From positions 1-64,000 of the forward strand of contig JAPOTJ010000048.1 of the NCBI GenBank assembly GCA_026709225.1: a stretch of DNA of 64,000 nucleotides. The letters are read 5' to 3'. The translations under genes were made by a program, and so were the position numbers. The first letter of the stretch is position 1. Each line of letters starts with the position of its first letter. This document shows positions 19,177 through 38,507 of this stretch, piece by piece. This stretch comes from Gammaproteobacteria bacterium (lineage in GTDB: Bacteria; Pseudomonadota; Gammaproteobacteria; Pseudomonadales; Azotimanducaceae). The notes below the pieces were generated by a model. That model saw nothing but the letters and a program-made list of their open reading frames with translations. It made no database searches and had not been told where the DNA came from.

Positions 19177-19732
19177 TATCTTGCGCACGGGCGGGATCGA
19201 ATTAGACGCAGCGCAGATCGAGCGCCTGAGAGAATTCGCCGCCATGCTCGAAGCCGCCAACAAGCGATTCAACATGCTCTCGCGGCGCACGGGCAACGCC
19301 GACGCGATTCTTGAAGATCATCTGATGGATAGTCTCCGTGCGCTGCCGTTGATTGAGGGCCGATCGGCGGCAGATGTTGGATCAGGCGCAGGCTTGCCGG
19401 GTGTTCCGCTCGCCATTGCCGACGCTTCGCGCTCGATAACGCTCATCGAACGAGCGTCCCGTCGCTGCGATTTCCTGCGTCTCGTCAAGACGCGCCTCGA
19501 CCTCGCCAATCTCGAAATTCTAGAAGCGGATGCGCGTGAAATCGAGCCGAATCCAGGCTTTGACACCGCGCTTGCCCGCGCACTGGCGAAGCCAGCGCAA
19601 GCGCTTCCCATTCTTGCTCGCTTGGTCAAACCGGGCGGACGCTTGCTGCTGTTTGTGGGTGATGGCAGCGAGCGGCTGCCGGGCGAGATTGAAGGGCGCT
19701 CCATACGCAGTGTTGGAGGGCCCGCCGCATGA
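19163..19732 (+). CDS. rsmG: 16S rRNA m7G527 methyltransferase RsmG
   Basis: SAM-dependent methyltransferase acting on 16S rRNA G527. The sequence shows FNMLSRR, DHLMDSL, the SAM loop [15 protein letters not shown] and [10 protein letters not shown], as in GidB. At 189 residues it is slightly shorter than the usual ~205. It overlaps the mnmG stop by 14 bases and parA by 4 bases. Confidence 0.93.
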
Positions 19733-20499
19733 GAACGCCGCGAGTGGTCTGCATCATCAATCAGAAGGGCGGGGTTGGCAAGACGACGACCGCGGTTAAT
19801 CTCGCGGCGGCGCTGTCGCAGCTTGGCTCTCGAACCTTGCTTGTGGACCTCGACCCGCAAGCGAACGCGACGCTTGGCTTCGGGGTGCAGCCGAGTAGCT
19901 TGCGAGCAAGCCTCTATGATTCGCTTGTTGAAGATGCATCGATCATTGAGGTGCGAGTGACAGGGCTCGCTGCGGGCGTGGACCTGTTGCCCGCGCATGG
20001 TGATATGACAGGCATGGATGTGGCGCTGCAAGCCTTGGAATCGCCGCAAACACGGCTCAAGTCCACGCTTGCGGACATTCGCGCAGACTACGATGTTATT
20101 TTGATCGACTGCCCGCCGACGCTCAATCAGCTCTCCATCAACGGCCTAGGTGCCGCGAGCGGCATCATCATCCCGATGCAGTGCGAATACTATGCGCTCG
20201 AAGGACTGTCGGCGCTGCTCGATACCATTGACACCGTGCGCGACGCTGTGAATCCGGCGCTTGAGATCGACGGCATACTGCGCACCATGTACGACCCGCG
20301 CAGCAATCTGACGCGCGACGTGTCAAGGCAGCTTGTGCGCTACTTCGACCGCCTGTTGTTTCGCACGGTCATTCCGCGCAATGTGCGTCTCGCCGAAGCG
20401 CCGAGCCACGGCGAGCCAGCGACAGTTTATGATGCGAAATCGAGAGGCGCGATCGCCTATCAAGCACTTGCGGTGGAGTATCGGAGGCGTTGCTTATGA
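19729..20499 (+). CDS. parA: chromosome partitioning ATPase ParA/Soj
   Basis: Deviant Walker ATPase driving origin segregation. KGGVGKTTTAVNLA is near residue 13, DLDPQANAT and LIDCPPTL follow. 256 residues, typical for chromosomal ParA. ATGA overlaps with both rsmG and parB indicate tight co-translation. Confidence 0.96.
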   Translation: MRTPRVVCIINQKGGVGKTTTAVNLAAALSQLGSRTLLVDLDPQANATLGFGVQPSSLRASLYDSLVEDASIIEVRVTGLAAGVDLLPAHGDMTGMDVALQALESPQTRLKSTLADIRADYDVILIDCPPTLNQLSINGLGAASGIIIPMQCEYYALEGLSALLDTIDTVRDAVNPALEIDGILRTMYDPRSNLTRDVSRQLVRYFDRLLFRTVIPRNVRLAEAPSHGEPATVYDAKSRGAIAYQALAVEYRRRCL

Positions 20500-21368
20500 A
20501 TGCGGCCAAGCGCGGATTGGGGCGCGGTCTAGACGCACTGCTTGCGGGGCGGGAAGCGCCCGAGCCCTTGGAAGGCCGGCTCAAACAGGTGCCGATCGAT
20601 CTCATTCGGCGAAATAGCGATCAACCGAGGCGTCATTTTGGCGAAGACGACCTCGCCGCGCTCGCCGATTCGATCCGAGAGCAAGGCGTGCTCGAACCTG
20701 TGCTGCTGCGGCCGGCTGGCGAAGGAAACTACGAGATCGTTGCCGGCGAGCGGCGTTGGCGAGCCGCGCAGCAGGCAGGACTGACGCAAATACCGGCTTT
20801 GATTCGCGATGTGGACGATAGTCAAGCACGCGCTGTGGCGCTCGTCGAGAACATGCAGCGTGTTGATTTGCGCCCGCTAGAGCAGGCCGAAGGCCTCCAT
20901 CAACTGATGAGTGAGCACAGTCTCACGCAGCAGGCGGTATCCGAGACTGTTGGCTTGTCGCGCGCCAAAGTGGCGAATCTTCTGCGGCTTCGTGCGCTAG
21001 AGCCGGAAGTCAAGTCGCTGCTTGATGCCGAGCAGCTGAGCGAGGGACACGCCAAGGTGCTGCTCGGTCTCAGCGAAGGATTGCAAATCAGGGCTGCGAA
21101 GGAAGCGGCAATGAGCGCGCTGTCTGTGCGTCAGACAGAGACGCTGGTCAATCGACTGCGAAAATCCGAGACGGCGGCAGACCTCGATCAGCGTGAGGAT
21201 GCGAATAAAGATGCAGACACGCGCATTCTCGAACGCGAACTTGGCGAGCGCCTCGGTGCTAAGGTGAGCATACGCACCGGCAAGCGCGGCAAGGGCCGAC
21301 TGGTGATTCAGTATTCCTCGCTCGACATCCTTGACGGGATTTTGCGCCGAATTAGAACCGGCTCGTAA
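20496..21368 (+). CDS. parB: chromosome partitioning protein ParB/Spo0J
   Basis: CTPase/DNA-binding protein that loads at parS and spreads. The N-terminal ParA-interacting GLGRGLDALL, the CTP-binding region with GERRWRAAQQAG and ENMQRVDLRPLEQA, and an HTH with LSRAKVANLLRL are all present. The ATG at 20496 follows GGAGG and gives 290 residues. Its 3' end overlaps the convergent TonB-dependent receptor gene by 17 bases. A matching parS lies at 9079-9094. Confidence 0.96.
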   Translation: MNAAKRGLGRGLDALLAGREAPEPLEGRLKQVPIDLIRRNSDQPRRHFGEDDLAALADSIREQGVLEPVLLRPAGEGNYEIVAGERRWRAAQQAGLTQIPALIRDVDDSQARAVALVENMQRVDLRPLEQAEGLHQLMSEHSLTQQAVSETVGLSRAKVANLLRLRALEPEVKSLLDAEQLSEGHAKVLLGLSEGLQIRAAKEAAMSALSVRQTETLVNRLRKSETAADLDQREDANKDADTRILERELGERLGAKVSIRTGKRGKGRLVIQYSSLDILDGILRRIRTGS

Positions 21369-23472
21369 TCGTCAGCCTTGCATTGAGCGGCGCGCCGACG
21401 CTTGCCTGGTGCGTGCTATGCGAGTGCGGAAAATAGAGTTCGTCCGTCAGGTTCTCGATGTTCAGCTGCACGCGAAGGGTCTTGGAGACTTGGTAGTACG
21501 CGCAGGCGTCGAATCGCGTGTAGCTCGGCAGGACGGCGCTGTTCGAGTTGTTGATGAAACTCTCGTCCTGATAGGTGAGGCCGAGGCCGAGCGCAAACTT
21601 CTCTGAGATTTGCAGGCGGTTGTATATGGAGAAGGTGTGCTCCGGCAGCTCGCGCGGTCGTAAGCCTGTGGCGCCTGCTCGATTGACCTGCTCGCCGTCG
21701 AGATAGCTGTAGCCAGCCGAGACAAACCAATTGCGAGCGGCCTGTCCCTTGATCTGCGCTTCGAAGCCGGAGATTTCGGAGTCGATGACATCGAGCGTTG
21801 CGGGGTCGTCGTCTGCGACTTGGGGCGATCTTTGCTCGATCTCAAAGAGCGCGGCGGTGAGGCTGAAGGCGGGTCCAATATCCCATTTCACCCCCGCCTC
21901 CAAGTTCGTAAAAGTGTTCGGTTCGAGCCGGTCGTTCGAGCCATTGATGTTGGCGAACTGTTCGCCGCTTCTCGGCAGGAACGATTCGCTGTAGCTCGCG
22001 TACAACGAGAGATTTTCCTGCGGCTTATAGACGATGCCGAGGCGCGGCGTGACTTGTTCATCTTCTCTGCGTCTTGTTTCGTCTGCCGGAAGGTTGAAGA
22101 CGTCGATATCAAAGCGATCATAGCGGGCACCGACAATCAGGTGCAGGTTGCTTGAGCCCTTAATTTCGTCTTGGATGTAGGCCGAAAACACATCGATGCC
22201 GACTCGCGTGTCGTCGTTAAGGTCTGACGTAAAGCTGTTTGTCGTGGCCATGCCGGCGGCATTGATGCCGTGGCCTGCGTTCAATCGCAGGGGCTTCGCG
22301 ATGGTGAAGATCTCATTGTCGTCAGACGTTGTGTTCCAGAACGAATTGAAGCGATCTTGATCAGAAGATGTGTCGATGACCTCGGCGCCGGCGATGAAGG
22401 TGTGAGAGACCGCCCCGGTCGCCACTTCAGCGATCAGATTTCCCGACAAGATGATGTTCTGACGATCGGTGGTGTCCACATAGCCATCGAGCGTCACCTG
22501 CTCTGGCGAGGCGCTTTGATTGTAGCCGGACGCATAGAAATTCTGATACAGCTTGTCGTAGTCGCCGTAGAACGCGCTGAAATTACCTTTTAGATTCTCG
22601 CTAAAGTCATGCTGCAAGGCGGCGCGAAGCAAATGCGCGGTGATTTCGGTGGTGTTGAGTTCCGGGTCGCCAAAGACAATGTCCTCGAACGCTTCGACAG
22701 GTTCTCCGTCCGCCCCGGTGGGAATGCCGCGATCAATGAAGCGTTGGTGGTCCACATACTCATAAGCGAGGTCGAGCGTCGTGCCCGTTGCGAACTCGAA
22801 TTTGGCGGTGGGGTTGATGCCGATTCGATCACCGTCATAGGCATCGCGGTGATTGTTGAGGCGTTCATAGAATGCATTGATCCGATAGGCCGAGTGGTCG
22901 CCGGTCGAGAAGTTGCTGTCGATCTGCGCGTCAAACTCGCCGAATGTGCCGGCACCCGCAGAGACATCGGTGAACGTCTCGCCGATCACGCCCTTTTTCG
23001 TGACGCGATTGAGAATGCCGCCGGTGCCGCCTCGCCCGAAGAGGAGCGCATTCGGACCGCGCAGGATTTCCACCTGCTCCAAATTGTAGAGCGGACGGTA
23101 GTATTGAACATCGTCGCGTGCGCCGTCAATGAAGAAATCCGCTGTTGATCGCACGCCGCGAAAAACGACGGCGTCGCGGTGGCCTTCGCCTTGAGAGTTA
23201 CTGACCCCTGGCGTGTAGTCAACAATGTCGCCGATGCTCGTGAAGCCTTGCACTGCGATTTGCTCGGCAGTGATGATCGACAGGCTCTGCGGCACTTCAA
23301 GGATGGGGGTGGGGGTTTTGAGCGCGTTGATGCGGTCGGCGTACAAATGCTTGGCAACGACGACGATCTCTTCGAGCGTGGATTCTTGTTGTAAGTCTTG
23401 TTGTTCGGCGTGTGCGAACGGTACGCAGGCGCATAGGAAGAAGAAGCCTGCCGAGAGAAGATATCGATTCAT
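21352..23472 (-). CDS. TonB-dependent siderophore receptor
   Basis: Predicted 706-residue outer-membrane receptor. A signal peptide (MNRYLLSAGFFFLCAC...AHA) is followed by a TonB-box-like LEEIVVVA. The plug has VPQSLSIITAEQI and VEILRGPNALLFGRG, and a beta-barrel ends in RLTITSRF with terminal Phe. The plug motifs place it in the ferrisiderophore (Fiu/FhuA-like) branch; the ligand is unknown. The upstream Fur-box-like sequence supports iron regulation. Confidence 0.93.
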   Translation of the reverse strand: MNRYLLSAGFFFLCACVPFAHAEQQDLQQESTLEEIVVVAKHLYADRINALKTPTPILEVPQSLSIITAEQIAVQGFTSIGDIVDYTPGVSNSQGEGHRDAVVFRGVRSTADFFIDGARDDVQYYRPLYNLEQVEILRGPNALLFGRGGTGGILNRVTKKGVIGETFTDVSAGAGTFGEFDAQIDSNFSTGDHSAYRINAFYERLNNHRDAYDGDRIGINPTAKFEFATGTTLDLAYEYVDHQRFIDRGIPTGADGEPVEAFEDIVFGDPELNTTEITAHLLRAALQHDFSENLKGNFSAFYGDYDKLYQNFYASGYNQSASPEQVTLDGYVDTTDRQNIILSGNLIAEVATGAVSHTFIAGAEVIDTSSDQDRFNSFWNTTSDDNEIFTIAKPLRLNAGHGINAAGMATTNSFTSDLNDDTRVGIDVFSAYIQDEIKGSSNLHLIVGARYDRFDIDVFNLPADETRRREDEQVTPRLGIVYKPQENLSLYASYSESFLPRSGEQFANINGSNDRLEPNTFTNLEAGVKWDIGPAFSLTAALFEIEQRSPQVADDDPATLDVIDSEISGFEAQIKGQAARNWFVSAGYSYLDGEQVNRAGATGLRPRELPEHTFSIYNRLQISEKFALGLGLTYQDESFINNSNSAVLPSYTRFDACAYYQVSKTLRVQLNIENLTDELYFPHSHSTHQASVGAPLNARLTITSRF

Positions 23473-23816
23473 GGGCGGAAACAAACGCAAATGAGAACGA
23501 TTTATATTTGCATCCATTGTGCCCTTTGTCAAGCTGGCAACGGCAGCTGTCTCTTGTTTAACTAGCATTCATGCAAAATCGACTCTTGACACTTTCGCGC
23601 TGCTTCGTGTCCAATTACCCCTGAACGGTGACGTGGCAGGCTGCTGAGGCTACAGTCGCATGGTAGGAGATTTGATACGGAGCGGTTTCGGACAAGGATG
23701 CGCAAAGATTGGTTTTATCTAGATGAGCGGTTCCTCGTGCTGCTGCACCCGCCAACGGCGTGGTACTAGGCGGAGTCGCCTCGGGTGGCTGTTCCGCAAT
23801 ACGGAATCTCAGTCTG
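23473..23816. other. intergenic junction between core segment and first island
   Basis: About 340 bases between the divergent receptor and methyltransferase genes. Beyond the receptor promoter I see no gene, repeat, tRNA or attachment site. The promoter of the methyltransferase operon should be here, but no convincing -35/-10 pair was found. Confidence 0.5.
23488..23532 (-). promoter_or_regulatory. receptor promoter with Fur-box-like sequence
   Basis: On the minus strand TTGACA (23527-23532) stands 17-19 bases before an AT-rich -10 region (about 23503-23509). Overlapping that, TGAGAACGATT (23492-23502 on +) matches the core of the Fur consensus TGATAATCATT at 8 of 11 bases. The position suits iron repression of the receptor gene. 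Confidence 0.5.
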
Positions 23817-24860
23817 ATGTCCTTCCGTTATATCGGTTCGAAGGCCCGTGTCACAAGAGCAATACTTGACCGAGTAGGTGAGCCGGATGGGGGAATCTTT
23901 CATGACGCGTTCTCAGGCACTGGTGTGGTGGCGCGGGCCGCCTCGGAAGCAGGATGGAAAGTTCACGTCAACGATCACCTGATATCCTCGGCCATTATGT
24001 CGCTTGCACGAGTGACATCGTCCGAGCAAGCCGATTTTAGTTTGATTGGAGGATATTCTCAGGCCATCGACGAACTAAATGCAGCGGAACCCGTTAGTGG
24101 ATTCATCTGGCGGGAATACAGCCCGGCATCGGCAAGGCACTGTGATGTCGAACGCATGTACTTCACGGAACATAACGCCAAGAAGATCGATGGCATGCGA
24201 AGGCAGATCGAGCAGTGGCGCAATGACGGCAGCCTCAATGACGCAGAAACGTACGTCTTGATTGCCGATTTGATGGGCGCTGCGAATAGGGTCGCCAACA
24301 CGGCGGGCACCTACGGTTGTTTCCTCTCCAGATGGCAGAAGCAATCACTGGCAAACATTGCGGTTGTTGCGAGGATCCTGCCTCAGCAAGCACCACACGC
24401 CACAATGACCTCGGATGATGTTGCAAAATTACATTACGAGTTAGAGGACACCGTTTACTTTGACCCCCCATACACCAAACGCCAATATGCGGCGTACTAT
24501 CACGTATTAGAGACAATTGCGCTGGGGGATGAGCCGACAATCGGAGGAGTATGTGGGATAAGACCATGGAAGGATAAAGCTTCCGACTATTGCTACAAGG
24601 CGCGAGCTGCTATGGCACTAGAGCGGCTCGTTGAGGGCTGTCGGGCGAGACGCGTATTCCTTTCATACAGTGCCGAAGGGCACGTTTCTCTCGACGTATT
24701 GGCTAGCAAGCTCGAAAATGTCGGAAGAGTGCAGTTGCATGACTTAGACCAAATTGGCCGTTACAGGCCAAACCGCAAGGCGTGCCAAGCTGGCTCCGAG
24801 GTGCAGGAGGTGCTATTTGAAGTGCAAAAATCGGCAAGGCCGTACTGTTTGACGGCGTAG
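23817..24860 (+). CDS. D12-class DNA adenine N6-methyltransferase
   Basis: A 347-residue modification enzyme. FRYIGSKARV at the N-terminus is the D12-class motif X, DAFSGTGVVARAA (30-42) is the SAM loop, and YFDPPYTKRQY (DPPY at 216-219) is the catalytic motif. The ATG at 23817 gives a standard D12 start. It is first in a five-gene + cassette, with the next gene 3 bases away. Codon use is more AT-rich than parB. It probably protects host DNA from the McrBC-like nuclease downstream or forms a type II system with it. Confidence 0.88.
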   Translation: MSFRYIGSKARVTRAILDRVGEPDGGIFHDAFSGTGVVARAASEAGWKVHVNDHLISSAIMSLARVTSSEQADFSLIGGYSQAIDELNAAEPVSGFIWREYSPASARHCDVERMYFTEHNAKKIDGMRRQIEQWRNDGSLNDAETYVLIADLMGAANRVANTAGTYGCFLSRWQKQSLANIAVVARILPQQAPHATMTSDDVAKLHYELEDTVYFDPPYTKRQYAAYYHVLETIALGDEPTIGGVCGIRPWKDKASDYCYKARAAMALERLVEGCRARRVFLSYSAEGHVSLDVLASKLENVGRVQLHDLDQIGRYRPNRKACQAGSEVQEVLFEVQKSARPYCLTA

Positions 24861-24863
24861 AAT

Positions 24864-27083
24864 TTGAAAACGTTCGAAGCACGGAAATTAGCCGCGGTCA
24901 ATTCCGCTATAGCTTCCATCGTTGGTGATGGGAGCGATGCCTCCGAACTCCGAATGCAAGTTTTGGAGGCAGTAGCTGCTCGAATCGGCGGCTTCGGTCT
25001 AGAAGCCTTTCAGTCCCGGTTTGGCGTCGATCCGATAGAAAAACAGGGAGAACTACTAGATCAGGCAAGAGTGGTCTTGCGGTGTATTGATCACACGGGC
25101 ATTCATCCCGCATTATGTTTGAGTGTTTTGGCGCGTGAAGCTCTGGATGCAAGCGTTCGGCGCACGGAGGGTGCATATCACACCGACTTTCGACTGGCAC
25201 AATATTTGGCAGAAGGCATAGGCACGAAACTGAAGCCGGATGCCAAGATTCTGGATCCAGCGTGCGGTGCCGGCATCCTGCTAACAGCTGTTTCCATAGT
25301 AGCTTGCCGTTCTGATCGAGCCAAAACTAGTGACTGGCTTCGGCACTCGATATATGCAGCGGATTTGTCTCCGATCGCTTTGCGCGGGACATTGCTCTCT
25401 CTTTCAGCATTGACGGACGACATCGACTCACTTGAGGCGATGCGACAAAAATGGCGAATCCAAGACAGCTTGTTGGCAGAGGATGAAGTCTGGCATTCCA
25501 TGGCGCACGACGGGTTCGATGCATTTATAGCCAACCCTCCTTGGGAGAAGGTAAAGCTCACCCGTCACGAGTTCATCAAGGCGAACGGTAGCGAGCGTCA
25601 CTATGGATCAAGCTACTCAGATGAAGGATTGGCGGGATACGACATCGCGAGGGCACGAAAGGCGAACCTAGCTGCAAATTTAGTTATAAAATACCCGAGC
25701 CTAATTGGCGGTGAGCCTGATTTCTACGTCGCGTTTGCGGATATGGCGCTGAAGCTAACCCGCTTCGGTGGAATCGGCGCTTTGATCGTTCCAGGAGGGC
25801 TGATACGGTCGAAAAATACCCAGAGTCTTCGGCGCAAGCTTATCGAAAATTCCAAGGAATTAAGTTTTACAATCATGTCGAATAAAGCGAGGCATTTCGC
25901 CATCGATACGAGATTCAAGTTCCTATTGGTTAACTATACCAAGGCCGACGCAGGCGTAAAAAAAGTTCACCGAATCGGAATGATGCATGCCCATACTAGC
26001 GACGACCGTATCATGGCTAGCAGTAAAACCAACATTCCTTTACGTGCGCTTAGGGAGCTCCGGCCTGACCTGACATTGCCAGAAGTGAGAACGGCTTCGG
26101 AATGGCGCTTGTTTGAACGAATGCAATGTCGTAGCATAACTGACTTAGCTGACCCGCTTCCTTGTAAAGCGGCGTTCTGTCGGGAAGTCGATATGACTCG
26201 TGATAGACCCCACTTTGTGAGGGAGCCACAGCCCGACTACCTGCCGTTAGTCGAAGGGCGCATGGTTCATTTGCATAGGTTGGGATGCAAGGCTTACGCT
26301 TTTGGCGAGGGGCGAAGTGCTCGATGGCGAAGTTGCCCCCCCGGCCGAAGTGTGATTAGGCCGCAATTCTGGGTATGGAAGGATGCCCTATCTCCTCAGG
26401 CTGCTGAGCGGGTCCGGCGAACTAGAGTGGGCTTCTGCGATATAACTGGACAAACGAACGAGCGTTCAATGATGGCAGCCATAATTCCGCCAGGCTTGGT
26501 CTGCGGCAATAAAGTGCCCACTGTTGAATTTCCCAACGACCGCTCGGAAGAACGTCTACTGCTGTGGCTCGCAGTCGTAAACTCGCTACCGTTCGACTGG
26601 CTCATCCGGCGCGTTGTGACGACTACAGTAAATTACTTCGTACTTTCATCAGTTCGACTGCCTTCGCTTGATATGGGTAGCTCGCCAGCCCGGCGGCTTG
26701 TTGAGATCGCCCGACGGCTTAAGGACCTCGATTCTAAAGGTGATGTTAGTCTGGCGGACTGCTGGCATACTGCGAGCCTGCGTGCAGAAGCGGACGTGAT
26801 CGTTGCGAGTGCGTACGGGTGTAACGAAGATGACCTGTGGATGATAATCGACGACTTCCCGTTGCTCGACCGTGAGCAGCCGTCGTTGCCAGAATCCTCG
26901 AAGTCGACTGTGACAGCAGATATGCTCATCAGTACATGGAGACACCAAAAAAAGTGCCCGGGAGGCGATTCGTTTCGAAGATTGCGAGAAGCTGAAAAAC
27001 TGGGTGCAGTTCCGTACCTAAGCTCAGAATTTTCGAGAGGGAGCTTGGGAACCTTTAGCAAGATAGGGAGGTGCCCGGGATGA
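24864..27083 (+). CDS. large adenine-specific DNA methyltransferase (Eco57I/Alw26I-like)
   Basis: 739 residues from a TTG start. The catalytic part has LDPACGAGILLTA (motif I, 130-142) and FIANPPWEKVKL (NPPW at 224-227), with an N-terminal helical region. The long C-terminal half (about 400-740) has no motif I recognise and probably holds target recognition. The arrangement resembles methyltransferases of Alw26I/Eco31I-type systems. No PD-(D/E)XK nuclease is evident inside it. The stop overlaps the next start as ATGA. Confidence 0.85.
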   Translation: MKTFEARKLAAVNSAIASIVGDGSDASELRMQVLEAVAARIGGFGLEAFQSRFGVDPIEKQGELLDQARVVLRCIDHTGIHPALCLSVLAREALDASVRRTEGAYHTDFRLAQYLAEGIGTKLKPDAKILDPACGAGILLTAVSIVACRSDRAKTSDWLRHSIYAADLSPIALRGTLLSLSALTDDIDSLEAMRQKWRIQDSLLAEDEVWHSMAHDGFDAFIANPPWEKVKLTRHEFIKANGSERHYGSSYSDEGLAGYDIARARKANLAANLVIKYPSLIGGEPDFYVAFADMALKLTRFGGIGALIVPGGLIRSKNTQSLRRKLIENSKELSFTIMSNKARHFAIDTRFKFLLVNYTKADAGVKKVHRIGMMHAHTSDDRIMASSKTNIPLRALRELRPDLTLPEVRTASEWRLFERMQCRSITDLADPLPCKAAFCREVDMTRDRPHFVREPQPDYLPLVEGRMVHLHRLGCKAYAFGEGRSARWRSCPPGRSVIRPQFWVWKDALSPQAAERVRRTRVGFCDITGQTNERSMMAAIIPPGLVCGNKVPTVEFPNDRSEERLLLWLAVVNSLPFDWLIRRVVTTTVNYFVLSSVRLPSLDMGSSPARRLVEIARRLKDLDSKGDVSLADCWHTASLRAEADVIVASAYGCNEDDLWMIIDDFPLLDREQPSLPESSKSTVTADMLISTWRHQKKCPGGDSFRRLREAEKLGAVPYLSSEFSRGSLGTFSKIGRCPG

Positions 27084-27631
27084 GTAGCGGTTCACAAGTA
27101 ATGCGTGTCGTTTTCCAGATATTGAAGCCTGGTGACCGTCTAAAAATGAGTGCAGTTTCGAACGTTTCGCAGACAGGAGGGGGTGCCCGGGATCTACGAT
27201 TCCGTCCCGAAAACGCGTTTCTGCCAGTCTTCAAAAGAATGCTTCCCGAGATAGTCTTGGAAACCCGGAGAGCCTCACTGATTGAGACCTATAGCGGAAC
27301 AGTCTATTGGGAAGCGTCAGGGCAAGAGCACTCGCGGAAAATGAAGGTATGGCCAGCCACTGAGGCAAGGCGAGACGAATGCCGCATTGGAGGAGTCAAC
27401 CACTTTGATTTTTCTGGGCTGGTAAAAGACGACCCGGCTGGTCGGAGATCTATATTTATGCTATTTCAACTGCGTAGTGGCGTCGTTCGGGTTCACTTCA
27501 CAACGGAGACCAGTTTGAGGTCAGAAAGCTGGAACTCGACCATCAAGAGCTTCGCCAATTATTGGATGAAAACGCAACACCGGTCGGCATTTCTGGATCT
27601 TGAGACAAATGAGAGATTCCCCGATGATTAA
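27080..27631 (+). CDS. unknown protein between methyltransferase and McrB-like gene
   Basis: 183 residues, not recognised. The ATG at 27080 follows GGGAGG and overlaps the previous stop; its own stop overlaps the mcrB-like start. It has a basic N-terminal half and a C-terminal segment SIFMLFQLRSGVVRVHF likely to be beta structure. The McrB-like protein downstream lacks the N-terminal DNA-recognition domain usual in McrB, so this protein may supply DNA binding in trans; that is inference from position only. Confidence 0.75.
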   Translation: MSSGSQVMRVVFQILKPGDRLKMSAVSNVSQTGGGARDLRFRPENAFLPVFKRMLPEIVLETRRASLIETYSGTVYWEASGQEHSRKMKVWPATEARRDECRIGGVNHFDFSGLVKDDPAGRRSIFMLFQLRSGVVRVHFTTETSLRSESWNSTIKSFANYWMKTQHRSAFLDLETNERFPDD

Positions 27632-28754
27632 TGCCAGTGAGATTTTGGCGCTTCTGGCTGAGCAGCGTAATGTTGTGGTGGCCGGACCGCCTGGAACTGG
27701 CAAGTCGATGCTCTTGGGGGAGGTGGCAGCCCTATTCGAAAGCCAGGCAGGGGAAAGCGCTCCTGAATACAGTGCGGAAGCGTCTGTACCTATTCCGGCC
27801 CTAACAGGTGCTCGCCTCGCGAAGACGATAGGCAAAGTTGGGAACAGACGAGTTTTTCGTTCTGTGCTGCATCAGTCGAGCAAGTATCGCGAGTTTCTAA
27901 CCGGAATGATGCCAGACGCACGGGCGGAAGCTGCGCCGGGAAAGTTCCGTGTGACGGAAGGTATACTCTACAAAGCAAGCGAATTCGCTAAGCGTGCTGA
28001 CCATGCGGCACTGGTGATCATCGACGAAATCAACCGCGGTCCAGCGGTACAGGTCTTTGGAGGCTCAATCGTCGCAATGGAGGGGGATAAGCGTCTCGGA
28101 CCGGGCGGCAAGCGGAGACCATCGACACAGTATTTCGAACTCTTGGATCCTAACACTGGGGACTTGATTGAGTACGCGTTTCCAGAGTCGCTATATCTCT
28201 TAGCAGCCATGAACCAAGCGGACGTATCGGTGGAGCCGCTGGACGTGGCGTTCTTACGGCGTTGGGCGCCTCTTACGCTGGAACCGTCTTCCTCAGTGCT
28301 GAGGGAGTATTTCGGGATTGGTGCTGACGAAGGTGATTTGCTTCCAGAATCACCGTTATCGCGAGAACATGTTCTGCAAGCGACTGTTAGAGCTTTTGAT
28401 GCAGTGAATAAACGTATCGCGCTAGGTCGGGGACCCCAGTTCCAGATAGGGCACGGAATGCTAATGCCACCTGGAGGAATGCCGTCTGACTTGACAAGTG
28501 TTCTGAGTGCACTGGTAGCAGTGTGGAAGGTGTTGAAGAATCACATTGACGAAGTGTTTTTCGGTGATGTTCGTGGCGTGGCAGTTGTGCTTAACGCAAG
28601 CTTGGGGATCCCCGAGAATCCCTACTCGCTCGCGGAGAGGTCGTTTGGTGATGCGCCCAAGGCAGAAATCGAGGGACCAGTCTCGGTCGGTCCCGATGAG
28701 ATTTATGGCCTGATGCGAGCACTGGCTACTTCGGAACTGCCGATAGATGTCTGA
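27624..28754 (+). CDS. McrB-like AAA+ NTPase
   Basis: 376 residues, consisting of little more than the AAA+ motor. Walker A GPPGTGKS (21-28), Walker B VIIDEINRG (131-139), the McrB-type sensor region AAMNQAD (194-200; E. coli McrB has NTAD) and arginine residues LRRW (211-214). Unlike E. coli McrB there is no room for an N-terminal methyl-DNA-binding domain before the Walker A. ATG 27624 overlaps the upstream stop; ATG 27609 is an alternative. It overlaps the mcrC-like gene by 8 bases. Confidence 0.88.
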   Translation: MINASEILALLAEQRNVVVAGPPGTGKSMLLGEVAALFESQAGESAPEYSAEASVPIPALTGARLAKTIGKVGNRRVFRSVLHQSSKYREFLTGMMPDARAEAAPGKFRVTEGILYKASEFAKRADHAALVIIDEINRGPAVQVFGGSIVAMEGDKRLGPGGKRRPSTQYFELLDPNTGDLIEYAFPESLYLLAAMNQADVSVEPLDVAFLRRWAPLTLEPSSSVLREYFGIGADEGDLLPESPLSREHVLQATVRAFDAVNKRIALGRGPQFQIGHGMLMPPGGMPSDLTSVLSALVAVWKVLKNHIDEVFFGDVRGVAVVLNASLGIPENPYSLAERSFGDAPKAEIEGPVSVGPDEIYGLMRALATSELPIDV

Positions 28755-30048
28755 GTGGCAGCGCTACAGTGCGGTCGAATATTCGCGTCCGGCCGCACTC
28801 GCTGAGGAGATTTCAGGCCGCTCTCAAATACCAATCGGTCGTGCGAATAAGCTGCTTAGCGATTCGGCGGAACGTATACGTCGTCTCCTCGGTCTTGAAA
28901 CTGATCCAGTCTGCCGAATGGATGGTGGGGTTCAATTTCAAAACGTCGCCGGTATTGTGCTCGTAGCACCTCGGATCGAGTTGGAGATCGCACCAAAATT
29001 CCTCGGTGACGCGCCCGGCTGGCGTGAAGACTTTTTCTTACTTGCCACACTCTCATCTCATGGCCGACTGCTCGACAGAGACGGGCTAAATTCAGCCGCA
29101 CGTAGAACATCCAATCTCGCGACCTTGATTGCACGTAGCTTTCTAGAGATGTGCAGCCAAAATAGTCGCCGCCCTATTCGTTCCTACCATCGATTGCCGC
29201 ACACAGGACTTTCGCTTGAAGGTGAATTTGACCCGGAAGAGTTGACATTTCCCAGCGAGGATGGCTTCGAACAGGAAGTGACGACGTTTACCAGCACGAA
29301 CTCCTACAATGCGGTGCTTCGTGCTGCAGCATTAAGACTTTTCGGCATAGTTGCAGATGCGGATATGCGTGCCCGGCTTGAACGAATAATCCAGAGCCTG
29401 CCTCGACAGGCGATCCCAGTCCGTCTAAACGAACGGCGACTTCCGAGTCGTGCATGGCTATGGCAGCCAGCCTACGATCTCGCTGTCGACATACTGCGAG
29501 GATTTGGCGGGACGTTCGATCCAAAAAACCTGACCGCACCAGGATACATAGTAAGCACTTGGCAAACTTGGGAAGACCTTGTGTCGATAGCACTCCGATT
29601 GAGTTTCGGTGCTAGAAACGTTCATGTGAAATCTCGACATCGACTTGGCTCAAAAGTTGTTGGGAATGTAACCTCTGTGGTGAATGTCACGCCGGACTAT
29701 GTGATAGCCATCGATACCGACTACGGGCGGCGAGCCGTGGTGGTAGATGCTAAATACAAAGGCAGCGTTGATCGGGGGTCGCGAACGGTATCAAGTAGCG
29801 ACACCTATGAAGCGCTCGCTTTCTCCAGAGCCACGGGCGCGAACGAAGTTGTTCTGGTGTATCCAACAACGATTGGGAGCCGTGCGAGAGCACTAGGTTT
29901 CGTGGGATCTGCAAGCGAGTTTGCGAACATTGAGGTGGGGAGCACTCGCATCCGTGCAGTCGAAGTCGGGGTCCGGGGCGTGGCGGCGGCTCAAGGATTG
30001 CGGCGGTTCGCGGGGTCTCTGCGGTCGGCAATTGTCAGTGCGTCGTAG
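28747..30048 (+). CDS. McrC-like restriction subunit
   Basis: 433 residues with the McrC layout: an N-terminal region that should contact the McrB ring and a C-terminal nuclease. The PD-(D/E)XK signature is readable as TPDYVIAID (PD at 316-317) followed by VVVDAKYKG (D-A-K at 334-336). It ends the five-gene cassette. With the McrB-like motor it should form a nucleotide-dependent endonuclease; whether it cuts modified or unmodified DNA is open because two methyltransferases share the operon. Confidence 0.88.
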   Translation: MSEWQRYSAVEYSRPAALAEEISGRSQIPIGRANKLLSDSAERIRRLLGLETDPVCRMDGGVQFQNVAGIVLVAPRIELEIAPKFLGDAPGWREDFFLLATLSSHGRLLDRDGLNSAARRTSNLATLIARSFLEMCSQNSRRPIRSYHRLPHTGLSLEGEFDPEELTFPSEDGFEQEVTTFTSTNSYNAVLRAAALRLFGIVADADMRARLERIIQSLPRQAIPVRLNERRLPSRAWLWQPAYDLAVDILRGFGGTFDPKNLTAPGYIVSTWQTWEDLVSIALRLSFGARNVHVKSRHRLGSKVVGNVTSVVNVTPDYVIAIDTDYGRRAVVVDAKYKGSVDRGSRTVSSSDTYEALAFSRATGANEVVLVYPTTIGSRARALGFVGSASEFANIEVGSTRIRAVEVGVRGVAAAQGLRRFAGSLRSAIVSAS

Positions 30049-30319
30049 GATGTTGCGTGGACAGGGTTTTGGGAGAGGCTATTGGACAGTAGCGCGCGAA
30101 TCTGCGGAGATTCAACATCGGGCACAAGTACGGTCAGCCTAACACGTAGCGTCCGGCGACAAACAACGCATGCGGAGCGTGTTCCTTCTTGGAAGAGAGG
30201 TTCTGGGTGGGAGCAATGATGGAGCTGTTCTAGAGGAGGAAGAGCTTGGCGAAGAATCGGAAAGCTAGCGCCAGGCCGCTCGAAGATGCTGGCAGGAAAG
30301 CTGTGCACGCGACCCATTC
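30049..30319. other. non-coding stretch between mcrC-like gene and IS element
   Basis: About 270 bases with no supported gene apart from the read-through tail of the transposase frame down to 30265. The final TTC (30317-30319) is the left copy of the IS target duplication. Confidence 0.5.
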
Positions 30320-31317
30320 TGAGGTGCTCCCCATTCCCTGGACAGTTCGAGGGCGGAAATAAGGTGTGCTCCGGTGACTGAACGCCCTCTGGAAATGAAG
30401 TTTACGCGGGTCATGGCCGGCCGGCAAGCTCCGGTGTTCCCCGGTGATCGGGACGGGGCAGCCCCCGCCAAGGCCCCCGATGGGCTGGCGCGCCCCGCGA
30501 GGCACACGCTCGCGGGCGTGCGCCCACCGAGCGCCGAATGCGGCCTGACATGGTTGTAGAAGTCGAGCCACGCCCCGATCAGCTCGCGCGCGTGCCGACC
30601 GTCCTCAAGTTCGTGCAGGTACACGCACTCGTACTTCAATGAACGCCACAGCCGCTCGATGAAGATGTTGTCCAGGTACCGGCCCCGGCCGTCCATCGAC
30701 ATCTTCGCTCCTGCCGCCAGCACCCTGCCCGTGAACGCCTCGCTCGTGAACTGCGAGCCCTGGTCTGTGTTGAAGATCCCCGGCGTCCCGCCCAGCAGCG
30801 CGTCCTCCAGCGCCTCCAGGCAGAACCCGACGTCCACCGTGTTCGACAGCCGCCACGACAGCACGTGCCTCGTCGCCCAGTCCATCACCGCCACCAGGTA
30901 GAAAAAGCCGGACTTCACTGGGATGTACGTGATGTCCGCGCACCAGACCTGATCCGCCTCCACAATGTCCATGCCCCGCAGCAGGTACGGGTGCACGCGG
31001 TGGCCGGGCCCCGCCGCGCTCGTTCTCGGCGGCGGCCGCGCCGCGCGAATCCCCATCAGCCGCATCAGCCTCCGCACCCGCTTCGCGTTCACCTCCGCCG
31101 ACTCAAGGCGCAGGTGCGCGCACATCTGCCGCACGCCGTAGAACGGATAGGCCGTGTGCAGCTCGTCCATCCGCCTCATCAGCGCCAGGTTCGCCTCGCT
31201 CTCGCCTGCCGGAATGTAGTAGACGGACGACCTGCCCGCGCCCGCCAGCGCGCACTGCCTCACAATGCTCAGCCCCTCCATCGCGCCCACCGCCGCCAGG
31301 CGCTCCGACCGGCTCAT
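30265..31317 (-). CDS. IS3-family transposase OrfB (DDE integrase)
   Basis: Predicted 350 residues from the ATG at 31317 (MSRSERLAAV). An HTH-like N-terminus, then the rve catalytic core: WCADITYIPV (first Asp), FNTDQGSQFTS (second Asp) and YLDNIFIERLWRSLKYE (Glu). The frame has no stop inside the element; it reads through the left inverted repeat (encoding SREWGAPQ) and 18 codons of flanking DNA to 30265. The C-terminus has therefore been replaced by host sequence or has lost its stop; activity is uncertain. Confidence 0.88.
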   Translation of the reverse strand: MSRSERLAAVGAMEGLSIVRQCALAGAGRSSVYYIPAGESEANLALMRRMDELHTAYPFYGVRQMCAHLRLESAEVNAKRVRRLMRLMGIRAARPPPRTSAAGPGHRVHPYLLRGMDIVEADQVWCADITYIPVKSGFFYLVAVMDWATRHVLSWRLSNTVDVGFCLEALEDALLGGTPGIFNTDQGSQFTSEAFTGRVLAAGAKMSMDGRGRYLDNIFIERLWRSLKYECVYLHELEDGRHARELIGAWLDFYNHVRPHSALGGRTPASVCLAGRASPSGALAGAAPSRSPGNTGACRPAMTRVNFISRGRSVTGAHLISALELSREWGAPQNGSRAQLSCQHLRAAWR

Positions 31318-31664
31318 CTCCCCAAGCCCCGTAGAAAAAAATCCCGCTCCATCGTCAACTCCCCGTCTTCGCGTGCAGCTCCCGGACCGTCGCCTCATGG
31401 TCATCGCCTCGCTTCCCCGCGCCGCCCTCGAACGCCGCCGCCGCTCCCTCCGACGCCTGCCGCTTCCATGCGCTCACTTGATTCGGGTGCAGCCCGTTGC
31501 GCTGCGCGATCCCTTGGACCGTGTCGACCTCCTTCAGCGCCTCAAGCGCAACGCGCGCCTTGAAGCCCGCCGTGAACCTTCTCCTTTTTTGACCCATTCC
31601 TGTGTCTCCTTCTTAAGCTCGGAGCACACCTTGGCAACCTGTCCGAAAATTGGGGAGCACCTCA
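30320..31664 (-). mobile_element. IS3-family insertion sequence, 1345 bp
   Basis: Ends are defined by imperfect 26-base terminal inverted repeats (21 of 26 identical). The left end reads TGAGGTGCTCCCCA inward from 30320; the right end is the reverse complement ending at 31664. A 3-bp duplication TTC flanks both sides (30317-30319, 31665-31667), the usual IS3 target duplication. It contains orfA and a DDE orfB on the minus strand. It sits between the McrBC cassette and the metallo-beta-lactamase unit. Confidence 0.93.
31355..31597 (-). pseudogene. IS3-family OrfA (HTH), probably shortened by a one-base deletion
   Basis: 80 residues beginning MGQKRRRFTAGFKARVALEA, an IS3 OrfA with helix-turn-helix. 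It stops after HAKTGS, but the following bases in the next frame encode ELTMERDFFLRGLGR and then a TGA overlapping the OrfB ATG, exactly the expected OrfA tail. One more G in the G4 tract (31361-31364) would restore a 94-residue OrfA in the normal -1 relation to OrfB. A T7 run at 31334-31340 (minus strand) is a plausible frameshift site in the intact version. Confidence 0.7.
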
Positions 31665-31962
31665 TTCATCCCAAACTACAACTCCGACGTTATTCTGAGG
31701 CCTTGCTATTAATTGGCGGAATCGCAACCCTCGGAATCTTCGCCAAAACGTAGTGTGATACCTGATAAGGAAACGACGGGTAGTTAGACCGCACGCGGAT
31801 GGGATCAAAGCGCATTTGATCGGTATGCCCATCTCGATCAGGATGGGCCGAAGCTCGTTAGACAATAACAAACAGCGTATTCCTCTGATTCGCGCCCAAT
31901 CTGCGTTAAGTCGTCAGGGCAAGAAAACCAACCTTTTGTTCGAAGGTCTTGACAAGGATTAC
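31665..31962. other. non-coding stretch after the IS
   Basis: About 300 bases, AT-richer than the core genome. No convincing gene, repeat or terminator was found. It lies downstream of the metallo-beta-lactamase gene. Confidence 0.45.
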
Positions 31963-33054
31963 TCAGACTTTTATTGCCCCTCCAAACAACTGGACATTGG
32001 GCGCACGGGCGTCGGGCGTCCACCTAATAGTTACGCGCCCACCGGAATAAGCGGATGCGTCGAACTTCACCTCGGACGCATTGATGAGTTTGGCGATCTC
32101 CGCGCCATATTTCTTCTTTAACGGAACGGTCCTCGGTGTGCTTGTCAAATAGCAACGACTGGAAAGGGTGCGCAATCGTTCCAAGTCGGTGTCGTTCGGA
32201 AGCCGATGTCTCCCTTTGTTCATGGGAGTGACTATAGATGTAGGCTTTCCTTCAAGCATTTCATTCCAAACATCTTCGTTGTGAGCATTGCGGGACCCGT
32301 GATGTGGAACCTTGAACGAATGCGAAAGCGGGTGTCTGCCTCGACGGGCTTCAACCACTGCCCGCCAGCCTTTTAGGCGGTCTCCTCGCTCCTCTAAGTC
32401 TGCGCCGAGAAGCACGCCTTGTTGTCCCACTGATAAGAGCATCGCAACAGAGAGATCGTTTCGAGAGGGCTCGGAAATTCTGTGTTTGGGGCTGCCCTCG
32501 CTTTTGTTGGGGAAATCGGCAATTCGTCTTAGGAAATCTGTGAATTGTTTACTGGACGGAGAAAGCGCACGCAATTCCACCCGCCGATTATGGGCTAGTT
32601 CATCCGCGTCGCAATCAAGCACTATCGTATCTTCTTGAAGGACTTTTACCTGTCGCGGAGTTTCCGCAGCAAGTTTTAGACAATTCAAAAGTTCAGATCC
32701 ACCGCGGTCAAGGATTTTAACGGGCTGGTCTTCATGAACTTGAAGAAAAGCGAGGAACTCCTCACGCCGCAATGCTGCTCCAACGGACAGCCTAGCTTTG
32801 GGGCACGCTTCTAGTGTTTTGGCCAATCCCTTGACATGGTCATCGTGCCAATGAGAAGCACTGACTGAAATAACAGCTTCTTCAACCGGAATGCCGAGAG
32901 CGGTCAGATAGGAGATAGAAGCTGGCTCGTGATTGTCATCAAGACACGAATCGATAATCGCCCACTTTCCGGATCCGATGTGAATGACGATGCTCTCGCC
33001 GTACCCAGGACCAAAGACAGAAAGTTCGATTTCATTCGCTTCGGGAAGCTTCAT
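31963..33054 (-). CDS. ComEC-like metallo-beta-lactamase-fold hydrolase
   Basis: 363 residues, no signal peptide or membrane segment, so cytosolic. Metal-binding HWHDDH at 68-73, LLGADLE at 215-221 and KVPHHGS at 248-254 are the pattern of the MBL domain of ComEC/Rec2 and related nucleases, but standing alone. Last gene of a three-gene minus operon; its start overlaps the previous gene by 23 bases. Likely a nuclease or phosphodiesterase; substrate unknown. Confidence 0.85.
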   Translation of the reverse strand: MKLPEANEIELSVFGPGYGESIVIHIGSGKWAIIDSCLDDNHEPASISYLTALGIPVEEAVISVSASHWHDDHVKGLAKTLEACPKARLSVGAALRREEFLAFLQVHEDQPVKILDRGGSELLNCLKLAAETPRQVKVLQEDTIVLDCDADELAHNRRVELRALSPSSKQFTDFLRRIADFPNKSEGSPKHRISEPSRNDLSVAMLLSVGQQGVLLGADLEERGDRLKGWRAVVEARRGRHPLSHSFKVPHHGSRNAHNEDVWNEMLEGKPTSIVTPMNKGRHRLPNDTDLERLRTLSSRCYLTSTPRTVPLKKKYGAEIAKLINASEVKFDASAYSGGRVTIRWTPDARAPNVQLFGGAIKV

Positions 33055-33604
33055 CCCAGTTAATGTTTTCCACGAGTGTTTTAGCTTTTTTCAATGCTCG
33101 ATTAAAGTCTGCCTTTGAATGAGCCGGAAGCTGTCGAAAATATAGTTCTGATACCTTGCGAATTTGGCCAGACGGCAAGCGCTCCCGCCCGATTACCCAT
33201 CGTACGATAGCGCCCTCTTTTAGAAGATGTCTCTCCCGCGTACTAACATCGTCTATTGAGAAGAATGCTTGATCGGTCGGAAGAGGCGATTTTGACTGGA
33301 CGTTGGTCATTTTCACGAAGAATTCACTTCCGCGGATGCTCTCTACATAGCCTTCCCATTCCGCAGAAGGTGTGAGCGTTCGTTTTCGGAATTCTCGATT
33401 TTCTTCCGATGTTAGCTTGGGGAAACGTGCGAGGATTTCTTCGATGTCTGGTAGGCTCTGATGAGCCTTGTTCAAATCGAAGGCACCGGAGATATTAACC
33501 TTAACTCGTCTTTCGATGTAGTCATCTTTGTCTTGACTGATGACAGAGTGACGAGGCTCGAACTCGAGTTGTCTGCGAACAGCGGTTGAGGAGGAAAAAG
33601 TCAT
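33032..33604 (-). CDS. unknown 190-residue protein, middle gene of MBL operon
   Basis: Not recognised. Soluble and charged. A central segment (about 80-150: WEGYVESIRGSEFFVKM, FSIDDVSTRERHLLKEGAIV, RWVIG) looks like a small beta-barrel, possibly OB- or SH3-like. It overlaps the MBL gene by 23 bases and is 2 bases from the upstream gene, so all three act together. Confidence 0.72.
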   Translation of the reverse strand: MTFSSSTAVRRQLEFEPRHSVISQDKDDYIERRVKVNISGAFDLNKAHQSLPDIEEILARFPKLTSEENREFRKRTLTPSAEWEGYVESIRGSEFFVKMTNVQSKSPLPTDQAFFSIDDVSTRERHLLKEGAIVRWVIGRERLPSGQIRKVSELYFRQLPAHSKADFNRALKKAKTLVENINWDEASRSE

Positions 33605-33606
33605 AG

Positions 33607-34302
33607 TTACATTATCCCCGCTTGCATTAGGGTGTCGATGATAGTTTCGGCTTCTTCCATCGCCGGCTCGAAATGTTTAGCCAACATGTCAATTGCCACT
33701 TCGCTTCCATGCCCTTCGGGGAGATTTGAAAACTCGTGGTGGGAATTGACTCGAATATAGACCGCAGAATTATCCATAATGCGTACCGACGGTTCTATTG
33801 TGGCATTTGTCTGGACAATGTGACCATCAACCAACTTCGACTTTCGCCGCATGGTTAACGTCTGGAGACCTCCGGTTAATTCTCTATCTTCCGCATCCAT
33901 CCCTTCACCATAAGACCCCCACGGCTCTAGAGGTGCCAATTTCCGGCCAAGCCGTATTCGTGAAGAAGCATTCGGCAACCTGAAATGCACATCTCGATTA
34001 ATGCCAAGCGCAAAAATTGGGGTGTGGTGGAGATATTCACCGAAGATCATCGTAGCTATGTCTACGAGTTTGACCCATGGAGCGGCAAGAGTCTCGACGT
34101 GAAAGCGATCAGCTTGAACGCTATAGGTACGCGTATCAAGTGAAAACTGGGTGAAGTCCCGAGATGTGAGAACATCCCCGGATAGTTCGGATTCATCGAC
34201 TTCAATACCCTTGCTATGTAGCCATGCCGGATGGAAAATGGCGGGATTGAATTTTCCAAGGAAGACGATCGAGCAGCCAGAAATATCTGCCGAAATTACC
34301 AT
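33607..34302 (-). CDS. unknown 231-residue protein, first gene of MBL operon
   Basis: Not assigned to a known function. The ATG at 34302 with AGGA at about 9 bases is preferred over longer upstream forms. The N-terminal VFLGKFNPAIFHPAWL and middle HTPIFALGINRDVHFRLP are strong, family-like motifs that I associate with uncharacterised bacterial proteins, but I cannot name the family. No catalytic motif or membrane segment is apparent. It could be a sensor or adaptor for the MBL hydrolase. Confidence 0.72.
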   Translation of the reverse strand: MVISADISGCSIVFLGKFNPAIFHPAWLHSKGIEVDESELSGDVLTSRDFTQFSLDTRTYSVQADRFHVETLAAPWVKLVDIATMIFGEYLHHTPIFALGINRDVHFRLPNASSRIRLGRKLAPLEPWGSYGEGMDAEDRELTGGLQTLTMRRKSKLVDGHIVQTNATIEPSVRIMDNSAVYIRVNSHHEFSNLPEGHGSEVAIDMLAKHFEPAMEEAETIIDTLMQAGIM

Positions 34303-34520
34303 TTGCGTGATCCTAATCCTATAGCTCTTTGAATATTGTGGGAGAAGTGTCCCTTGCTCCGCCATGAACATGGCACCAAGAGGCGATGATCGGAAACCGG
34401 AGCTCAGAAGTGGTTCGAATGCTACAGTCAAGCCCATGTACAGTCAAGGTGGTTGTTGCCAGCAGGGGACTTAACGCTGCCATCAAAAGAAAGTTGGAGA
34501 GGCTGCGAGTTGGCGAGGAT

Positions 34521-35123: not shown

Positions 35124-35126
35124 GAT

Positions 35127-37503: not shown

Positions 37504-37563
37504 AGTGTGAACACGCCCTAGGCTAACCGGCGTATTGTGCGCAATTTGAGCGGTGTGTGGGAC

Positions 37564-38076: not shown

Positions 38077-38144
38077 GCGGGAAGGTTACGCAGGCCAGCA
38101 GGTCGGATTTTGTAGTTCCGGTCCTTGTCAGCGAACAACATATC

Positions 38145-38507
38145 TCATTGTTCGCGCTCTATATCAAGGCTCGCGAGCATACGCTCACAGGCATCACGAA
38201 GTGGCCCGATGTCGTTTCGAAGGATGTTTTCTACGGCTCCCAAATCGATGCCGAGATAGTCATGAACAATCGCGTTGCGGAATCCAGCGATAGATTTCCA
38301 TGGAACTTGGGCCTGGGTTGCTTTGATAGGCTCTGACAGCTTTTGAGTTGATTCGGCGATTAGGTGCAAGTCTCGTTCCACAGCACGCCTCACCAATGCA
38401 CTTGTGCGCAAAACTGACAAACCGTCTTCCAAGAAGTCCGTCATTTCGTCAATGGTGTCAAGAATGAACTTGAGGTATGTCCGATCGGAGACAGGGCCGG
38501 GACTCAT
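38145..38507 (-). CDS. hepT: HepT-type toxin (HEPN RNase family)
   Basis: 120 residues, all alpha. The HEPN active-site motif RX4HXY is present as RNAIVHDY near residue 83. Paired with a MntA-like nucleotidyltransferase through a 4-base overlap. In this family MntA poly-adenylylates the HepT tyrosine and so silences it. The pair sits between cobU and cobD. Confidence 0.9.
   Translation of the reverse strand: MSPGPVSDRTYLKFILDTIDEMTDFLEDGLSVLRTSALVRRAVERDLHLIAESTQKLSEPIKATQAQVPWKSIAGFRNAIVHDYLGIDLGAVENILRNDIGPLRDACERMLASLDIEREQ

What the first reader, a model, noticed from the sequence alone, without database searches (positions are those of the whole stretch)
23817..30048. Two adenine methyltransferases coupled to a minimal McrBC-like machine
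Five overlapping or 3-base-spaced genes: D12 methyltransferase, Eco57I/Alw26I-like methyltransferase, 183-residue unknown, McrB-like AAA+ without an N-terminal reader domain, and McrC-like PD-(D/E)XK nuclease. Classic McrBC cuts methylated DNA and has no methyltransferase; LlaJI-type systems pair McrBC-like subunits with two cytosine methyltransferases. Here the two are adenine-specific, suggesting restriction of unmodified DNA with recognition moved to the unknown protein.
Basis: partly seen in the sequence, partly recalled or inferred. Interest (0 to 1): 0.7.

Follow-up and report, generated by a model that had tools for sequence, protein, structure and literature searches.

The report
McrBC-type restriction system, detached B3 reader
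A rare but widely scattered five-gene bacterial defence operon appears to be a restriction-modification system in which two adenine methylases mark the cell's own DNA, a separate small B3-fold protein finds the unmarked target, and a stripped-down McrBC motor-nuclease cuts it; the plan is a new variant of the LlaI/BsuMI/LlaJI kind, with a reader gene that is swapped between otherwise similar operons.

Summary
In detail: five tightly packed genes at 23817-30048 encode a D12 adenine methyltransferase, an Eco57I-type methyltransferase, an unknown 183-aa protein, an McrB-like AAA+ with no N-terminal reader and a PF10117 McrC nuclease, with catalytic motifs intact. In 45 other loci (Pseudomonadota, Actinomycetota, Bacillota, Bacteroidota and others) the five genes keep one order and strand and co-diverge (r 0.85-0.98). 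A viral-contig scan led by the unknown protein alone found only complete modules (5/5). The methyltransferases and McrBC are therefore one system. The unknown protein is predicted with confidence (pLDDT 90) to be a stand-alone B3 DNA-binding domain (Foldseek top hit BfiI, then plant B3 domains). 18 of its 21 near-invariant residues lie in the two arm loops that read DNA in B3 proteins. In LlaJI a B3 domain is fused to McrB; here it is a separate subunit. New here: the D12 + Eco57I pair, the detached B3 subunit, a different nuclease family, and allele replacement of the B3 gene. No activity has been measured.

The parts
23817..24860 (+). M1: D12-class (alpha) N6-adenine methyltransferase, 347 aa; DPPY at about 24462-24473
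   Evidence: Pfam MethyltransfD12 E 1.8e-25; 36-65% identical to 39 homologues in the same module
24864..27083 (+). M2: Eco57I/Alw26I-like (gamma) N6-adenine methyltransferase, 739 aa, TTG start; NPPW at about 25533-25544
   Evidence: Pfam Eco57I E 2e-10, N6_Mtase E 1.2e-6; TIGR02987 101.9 bits, below cut-off
27080..27631 (+). R-reader: 183-aa stand-alone B3-fold DNA-binding protein
   Evidence: No Pfam/PADLOC/NCBIfam family; AF2 pLDDT 89.7 pTM 0.86; Foldseek top hit BfiI 2c1l E 6.5e-5 prob 1.00, then plant and UbaLAI B3 domains; repeated on a second member
27125..27202 (+). Predicted N-arm and beta-2 of the B3 domain: GDxRKxxAxSNDxxTGGGARDLRF
   Evidence: 14 of 23 arm positions and 1 of 3 beta-2 positions at least 90% conserved
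27353..27391 (+). Predicted C-arm of the B3 domain: PTxxRPxExRI
   Evidence: R98 and E101 invariant, T95 and R103 about 90%
27624..28754 (+). McrB-like AAA+ motor without N-terminal reader domain (frame open from 27600; Walker A 27684-27707)
   Evidence: PDB McrB 1e-14; profile hits TgMcrB 2e-30 and EcMcrB 9e-26
28747..30048 (+). McrC-like PD-(D/E)XK nuclease subunit, PF10117; PD...DAK at about 29692-29754
   Evidence: Pfam McrBC E 4.2e-18; profile hit TgMcrC 2.5e-6
23392..34501 (.). Genomic island carrying the operon, an IS3-type transposase and an MBL-fold gene triad; absent from the sister species
   Evidence: Flanks 19018-23391 and 34502-38085 are 81-83% identical and adjacent in G001, with about 170 bp between

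Best explanation
This is an NTP-driven Type II-like restriction-modification system that protects the host by methylation and cuts unmodified DNA. The D12 and Eco57I-type methyltransferases each methylate adenine on one strand of an asymmetric site (inferred: two single-strand MTases are the rule for asymmetric sites). The 183-aa B3 protein binds the unmodified site through its N- and C-arms (fold predicted here; DNA reading inferred from BfiI, NgoAVII, LlaJI). McrC docks on the ring, stimulates its NTPase (GTP by analogy) and cleaves with its PD-(D/E)XK domain, probably after translocation or collision (inferred from McrBC). Methylation of either strand blocks B3 binding and so cleavage (inferred). 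The operon spreads on islands, plasmids and ICEs. Its B3 gene is replaced by recombination without matching change in the methyltransferases, so the alleles probably still accept the same methylated site and differ in flanking contacts, partner contacts, or sensitivity to phage inhibitors (inferred).
For: Gene set and motifs. 45/45 loci in one order and strand, Mantel r 0.85-0.98, 0 of 999 permutations as high. B3-led viral-contig scan gives only whole modules, the same 5 contigs as the AAA-led scan. B3-led scan of 299 phylum genomes: only the window's own genome. B3 fold from two models of members 29% identical, BfiI first both times. Near-invariant residues sit in the two predicted DNA-reading arms. 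AAA and McrC profiles match McrB and McrC structures. The M2 profile matches adenine MTases of known structure. Literature: LlaJI reads an unmodified asymmetric site via B3 and needs two MTases (PMC12707154 sec. 31); R1.LlaJI binds site-specifically (PMC1459862); isolated B3 domains of CglI/NgoAVII read the cognate site for an ATPase-driven nuclease (PMC4267653).
Against: No biochemical or methylome data. Profile-profile comparison with EcoRII-N is no better than column-shuffled controls, so the B3 assignment rests on predicted fold only, with TM about 0.5. B3 alleles change (51-61% identity) while MTases stay 82-97% identical; if the B3 protein fixed the cut site exactly, such swaps should break self-protection unless the target is unchanged. 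The window copy departs at R22L and D30V, both nearly invariant elsewhere. Nucleotide preference (GTP or ATP) is untested.
Confidence: 0.78

Rival explanations
1. A Type IV (modification-dependent) McrBC that merely travels with two methyltransferases: the B3-like protein would sense a foreign methyl mark, and the MTases would be a separate or protective layer.
For: McrC is in PF10117, the Pfam McrBC family; the AAA profile scores higher against Tg/Ec McrB than against LlaJI-type McrBs. Many McrB branches are methyltransferase-associated (PMC11090510).
Against: Strict five-gene linkage and co-divergence. B3 domains of known function read unmodified sequence. A modification-dependent nuclease beside two constitutive MTases would attack its own host unless it sensed another mark.
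Confidence: 0.1
2. The 183-aa protein is not the reader but an accessory of the methyltransferases or a regulator of the complex, and target recognition lies in the methyltransferases themselves, which recruit McrBC as in a Type I/BREX-like complex.
For: The MTases are conserved and the 183-aa protein is exchanged without matching MTase change. The M2, reader and AAA genes overlap, so translation is probably coupled.
Against: Predicted B3 fold with arms far more conserved than the rest. The last three genes form a small cassette like those of LlaI and BsuMI (PMC1459862), where a separate protein stands beside the small McrB.
Confidence: 0.1
3. B3 alleles encode different or nested target specificities, so allele exchange changes what is cut within the set of sites the MTases protect. 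(A refinement of the main explanation rather than its opposite.)
For: Replacement dips centred on the B3 gene; the C-arm differs between alleles (R103 to W or K); a second B3-like gene lies downstream of mcrC in L046.
Against: The N-arm is conserved (0.73-0.88) and the MTases are about 80-98% identical across allele classes, without tracking them; specificity of any allele is unknown.
Confidence: 0.2

Closest known systems
LlaI (Lactococcus pTR2030)
   Same: Methyltransferase plus three restriction genes in one operon; McrB-like protein small (337 aa) and without N-terminal reader (PMC1459862); restricts unmodified DNA; methylase FokI-like and adenine-specific (the last from my own knowledge)
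   Different: Methylase is one fused polypeptide (own knowledge), not D12 + Eco57I.
BsuMI (Bacillus subtilis) and the five-gene locus L152
   Same: MTases, a three-ORF restriction cassette with small McrB and an McrC-like nuclease (PMC1459862 for BsuMI); two MTases, middle protein, small McrB, nuclease in one run (for L152)
   Different: Nuclease belongs to Pfam RE_LlaJI (PF09563; B. subtilis rings), not PF10117. The middle protein of L152 (287 aa) is not detectably related to the 183-aa protein. MTases include C5-cytosine enzymes
LlaJI (pNP40; Helicobacter pylori)
   Same: B3 domain reads an unmodified asymmetric site for an McrB-like motor and McrC-like nuclease; two MTases
   Different: B3 fused to McrB; two C5 MTases; nuclease in PF09563 (Pfam's RE_LlaJI)
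E. coli McrBC / Thermococcus McrBC
   Same: AAA+ motor and McrC nuclease
   Different: Fused modified-base-reading N-domain, no MTases, cuts methylated DNA
BfiI / NgoAVII / CglI
   Same: B3 domain as DNA reader; CglI/NgoAVII couple it to an ATPase
   Different: B3 fused to a PLD nuclease; SF2 helicase rather than AAA+
Methyltransferase-associated McrB clades (CoCoNuTs census, PMC11090510)
   Same: That census reports a large McrB branch next to predicted DNA methyltransferases, details deferred to a later paper
   Different: No five-gene B3 module is described in the text read here

Membership tests
McrBC-like Type II R-M (LlaI/BsuMI/LlaJI kind) | McrB-like AAA+ next to an McrC-like PD-(D/E)XK nuclease | tested here: met
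McrBC-like Type II R-M (LlaI/BsuMI/LlaJI kind) | Accompanied by a pair of DNA methyltransferases, constantly linked | tested here: met
McrBC-like Type II R-M (LlaI/BsuMI/LlaJI kind) | Restricts unmethylated DNA | not testable with these tools
   needs plasmid or phage assay
LlaJI/BsuMI family proper | Nuclease in Pfam RE_LlaJI (PF09563) | tested here: not met
   McrC hits PF10117 and not PF09563 at E 1, while L152-type nucleases and the B. subtilis control hit PF09563
LlaJI/BsuMI family proper | AAA+ clade shared with LlaJI-type McrBs | tested here: inconclusive
   Own 100%-supported clade; a common clade with LlaJI-type rows neither shown nor rejected, AU p 0.47
Type IV McrBC | N-terminal modified-base reader on McrB | tested here: not met
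   Walker A about 29 codons into the frame; 40 homologues alike
Type IV McrBC | No linked methyltransferase | tested here: not met
B3 DNA-binding pseudobarrel superfamily | B3 fold | tested here: met
   AF2 + Foldseek, two members; predicted only
B3 DNA-binding pseudobarrel superfamily | Sequence-profile similarity to EcoRII-N | tested here: not met
   score no better than shuffled columns; no Pfam hit in 45 members
B3 DNA-binding pseudobarrel superfamily | Site-specific DNA binding | not testable with these tools
   needs EMSA or a binding-site selection assay
Alw26I/Eco31I/Esp3I adenine MTase (TIGR02987) | Score over curated cut-off | tested here: not met
   101.9 against 353.5 bits: relative, not member

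The most novel reading that the evidence does not exclude
The recognition subunit of this McrBC-type system is a freely exchangeable cassette: B3 alleles recombine into otherwise conserved operons, sometimes with a spare copy kept in the operon (L046). The target reader of a motor nuclease is thereby renewed without change of the protecting methyltransferases, either to cut nested subsets of protected sites or to escape phage anti-restriction proteins. The module would also be an independent conversion of a PF10117 McrBC into a Type II system, parallel to LlaJI.
Probability: 0.3. Interest if true: 0.68.

Novelty: new variant of a known kind. Interest (0 to 1): 0.52.

Why it matters
It gives a naturally split McrBC Type II machine in which reader, motor, nuclease and both methylases are separate proteins, so each can be tested alone. 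That is useful for the open question of how McrBC-like rings are loaded at a site. [quoted passage not shown] Five of 5,426 complete E. coli genomes carry an intact relative, including two B3 alleles, so the work can be done in a laboratory host.

Tried and rejected
1) Sequence proof of EcoRII-N homology: built a family from nine genomic EcoRII-N proteins and ran hhalign; not significant. The motifs (SND..TGG, RxxExR) align collinearly but that is not proof. 2) LlaI and LlaJI sequences: pNP40 record (DQ534432) and the LlaI, BsuMI and LlaJI.R1 structure papers are not held; Pfam RE_LlaJI loci served instead. 3) Viral structure library: no B3 hit. 4) PDB by profile for the 183-aa protein: nothing at E 10. 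5) The Pfam Complex1_LYR hit of the window's 183-aa protein (E 0.012) is below cut-off and found in 1 of 45 members: rejected. 6) The idea that B3 allele classes track MTase alleles: not so.
Full report
Observation. Five genes on the + strand between 23817 and 30048 were confirmed with tight coupling (+3, -4, -8, -8 bases). Families: D12 MTase (E 1.8e-25), Eco57I MTase (2e-10), no family for the 183-aa protein, AAA+ close to McrB (PDB E 1e-14) and McrC (PF10117, 4e-18). The AAA+ has its Walker A about 29 codons into the frame, so the N-terminal reader of classic McrB is absent. Catalytic motifs of all four enzymes are intact, and the window copy departs from near-invariant positions about as rarely as most members.

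Is it one system? A tblastn of plasmids found the 183-aa protein in six records, all of them also among the AAA+ hits; five of the six were opened. A scan of 84,980 species genomes with the AAA+ alignment gave 47 loci. With the plasmid loci, 45 carry all five genes at good coverage, always in the order D12, Eco57I, 183-aa, AAA+, McrC on one strand. In L021 the McrC frame is split by about 2.3 kb. An independent scan of viral contigs with the 183-aa protein as bait gave five contigs, the same five found with the AAA+, all with five genes. Pairwise identities of the five proteins are strongly correlated (r 0.85-0.98, no permutation of 999 as high). In a sample of 299 phylum genomes only the window's own has the 183-aa protein, and relatives of its Eco57I enzyme elsewhere are remote (170 against 1032 bits). 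The system is rare but phylogenetically broad.

What is the 183-aa protein? AlphaFold2 with 42 family members gave pLDDT 89.7, pTM 0.86. Foldseek against the PDB placed the restriction enzyme BfiI first (E 6.5e-5, probability 1.00, TM 0.51), then plant ARF and LEC2 B3 domains and the UbaLAI B3 domain. A second model from a member 29% identical gave BfiI first again (E 4e-4), with TEM1 B3, other plant B3 domains and UbaLAI B3 among the next few hits. The viral library gave no hit under 0.001. I matched the predicted strands to the B3 topology (from my own knowledge: N-arm between strands 1 and 2, C-arm between 4 and 5). On that reading, 18 of the 21 positions conserved at 90% or more lie in the N-arm (14) and C-arm (4) and one more in strand 2 just after the N-arm; two lie elsewhere. 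The N- and C-arm loops enter the DNA major groove in B3 proteins (PMC9391945). Sequence-profile similarity to EcoRII-N is not significant, so this is a fold-level assignment.

How it most likely works. Shown here: composition, linkage, predicted fold, conserved arms, intact motifs. Precedents: LlaJI reads an unmodified asymmetric site by a B3 domain fused to McrB and needs two MTases (PMC12707154; PMC7680126); isolated B3 domains read the site for ATP-driven CglI/NgoAVII (PMC4267653).

Comparison. McrBC-like Type II systems with a pair of methylases (LlaI, BsuMI, LlaJI) are a described family (PMC2614495). LlaI and BsuMI have small McrBs in three-ORF cassettes (PMC1459862). To compare real sequences I fetched loci with the Pfam RE_LlaJI nuclease (B. 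subtilis control positive): two (L154, L156) have paired C5-type MTases and a long McrB; one (L155) has a DPPY-type plus a C5 MTase; in one (L153) no adjacent pair was seen; and L152 has an Eco57I MTase, a C5 MTase, a 287-aa protein, a small McrB and the nuclease, the same plan in five genes. But the window's nuclease is PF10117 and not RE_LlaJI, the 287-aa protein is unrelated to the B3 protein by profile, and the AAA+ forms its own clade (support 100), neither joined to nor separated from the LlaJI clade by an AU test (p 0.47). I therefore file it as a new variant of the kind, not as a member of the LlaJI family. A census of McrBC (PMC11090510) notes methyltransferase-associated McrB branches with details deferred, so the module may be known to others without publication in the text read.

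Reader exchange. Between close relatives DNA identity along the operon is about 70-98% except for a dip to 35-70% centred on the B3 gene (L029/L032, L010/L029, L031/L030, L020/L015). The B3 tree conflicts with the tree of the other genes: the grouping L010+L038, 100% supported by B3, is rejected by the other genes (AU p 2e-6; groups were named after seeing identities, so read with caution). As a further check, two E. coli strains with the operon were compared: B3 61%, the others 88-94%. B3 allele class does not track either MTase. Between alleles the N-arm is kept best (0.73-0.88); the C-arm varies nearly as much as the rest. This is unexplained: a reader that changes its target away from the methylated site should be lethal. 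Either the target is the same and other surfaces are under pressure, or alleles read nested sites. Stenotrophomonas L046 has a second B3-like gene downstream of mcrC.

Setting. In the sister species the flanks (81-83% identical) are joined with about 170 bp between, so 23392-34501 is an 11.1-kb insertion between a TonB-receptor gene and btuR, or its loss there. The G+C of the operon is 53.3% against 58-62% in the flanks, which favours insertion. Elsewhere the module sits on plasmids and integrative conjugative elements.

Verdict. Real, a coherent defence module, mechanism well supported by computation and untested at the bench; a new variant of a known kind.

Noticed in passing
L029, L032, L010, L031, L030, L020, L015, L157, L158: Sharp drop of DNA identity centred on the B3 gene between otherwise similar operons: allele replacement of the recognition subunit, not matched by MTase change.
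   Followed up: yes
L046:8659-9225: Second B3-like gene downstream of mcrC in Stenotrophomonas, with diverged arms; possibly a spare allele.
   Followed up: partly
window 31963-34437: Three minus-strand genes on the same island: an MBL-fold protein (weak PADLOC hits RTasMBL and LmuA, NCBIfam 6A-MBL) with two proteins of no known family; a candidate second defence system.
   Followed up: partly
window 30265-31404: IS3-type transposase (rve, HTH_21; 67% GC) directly after the operon.
   Followed up: partly
window 38145-38878: HepT-like/nucleotidyltransferase pair within cobalamin genes; likely HepT-MntA-type toxin-antitoxin.
   Followed up: no
L152:2559-8914: Bacilli five-gene McrBC-like locus with Eco57I MTase, C5 MTase, unknown 287-aa protein, small McrB and RE_LlaJI nuclease: mixed adenine and cytosine protection.
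   Followed up: partly
L025:11307-14557: A second, unrelated McrB/McrC pair directly downstream of the module.
   Followed up: no
window U183 residues 22 and 30 (about 27140-27166): The window's B3 protein has L and V where nearly all homologues have R and D in the N-arm; may affect binding.
   Followed up: no
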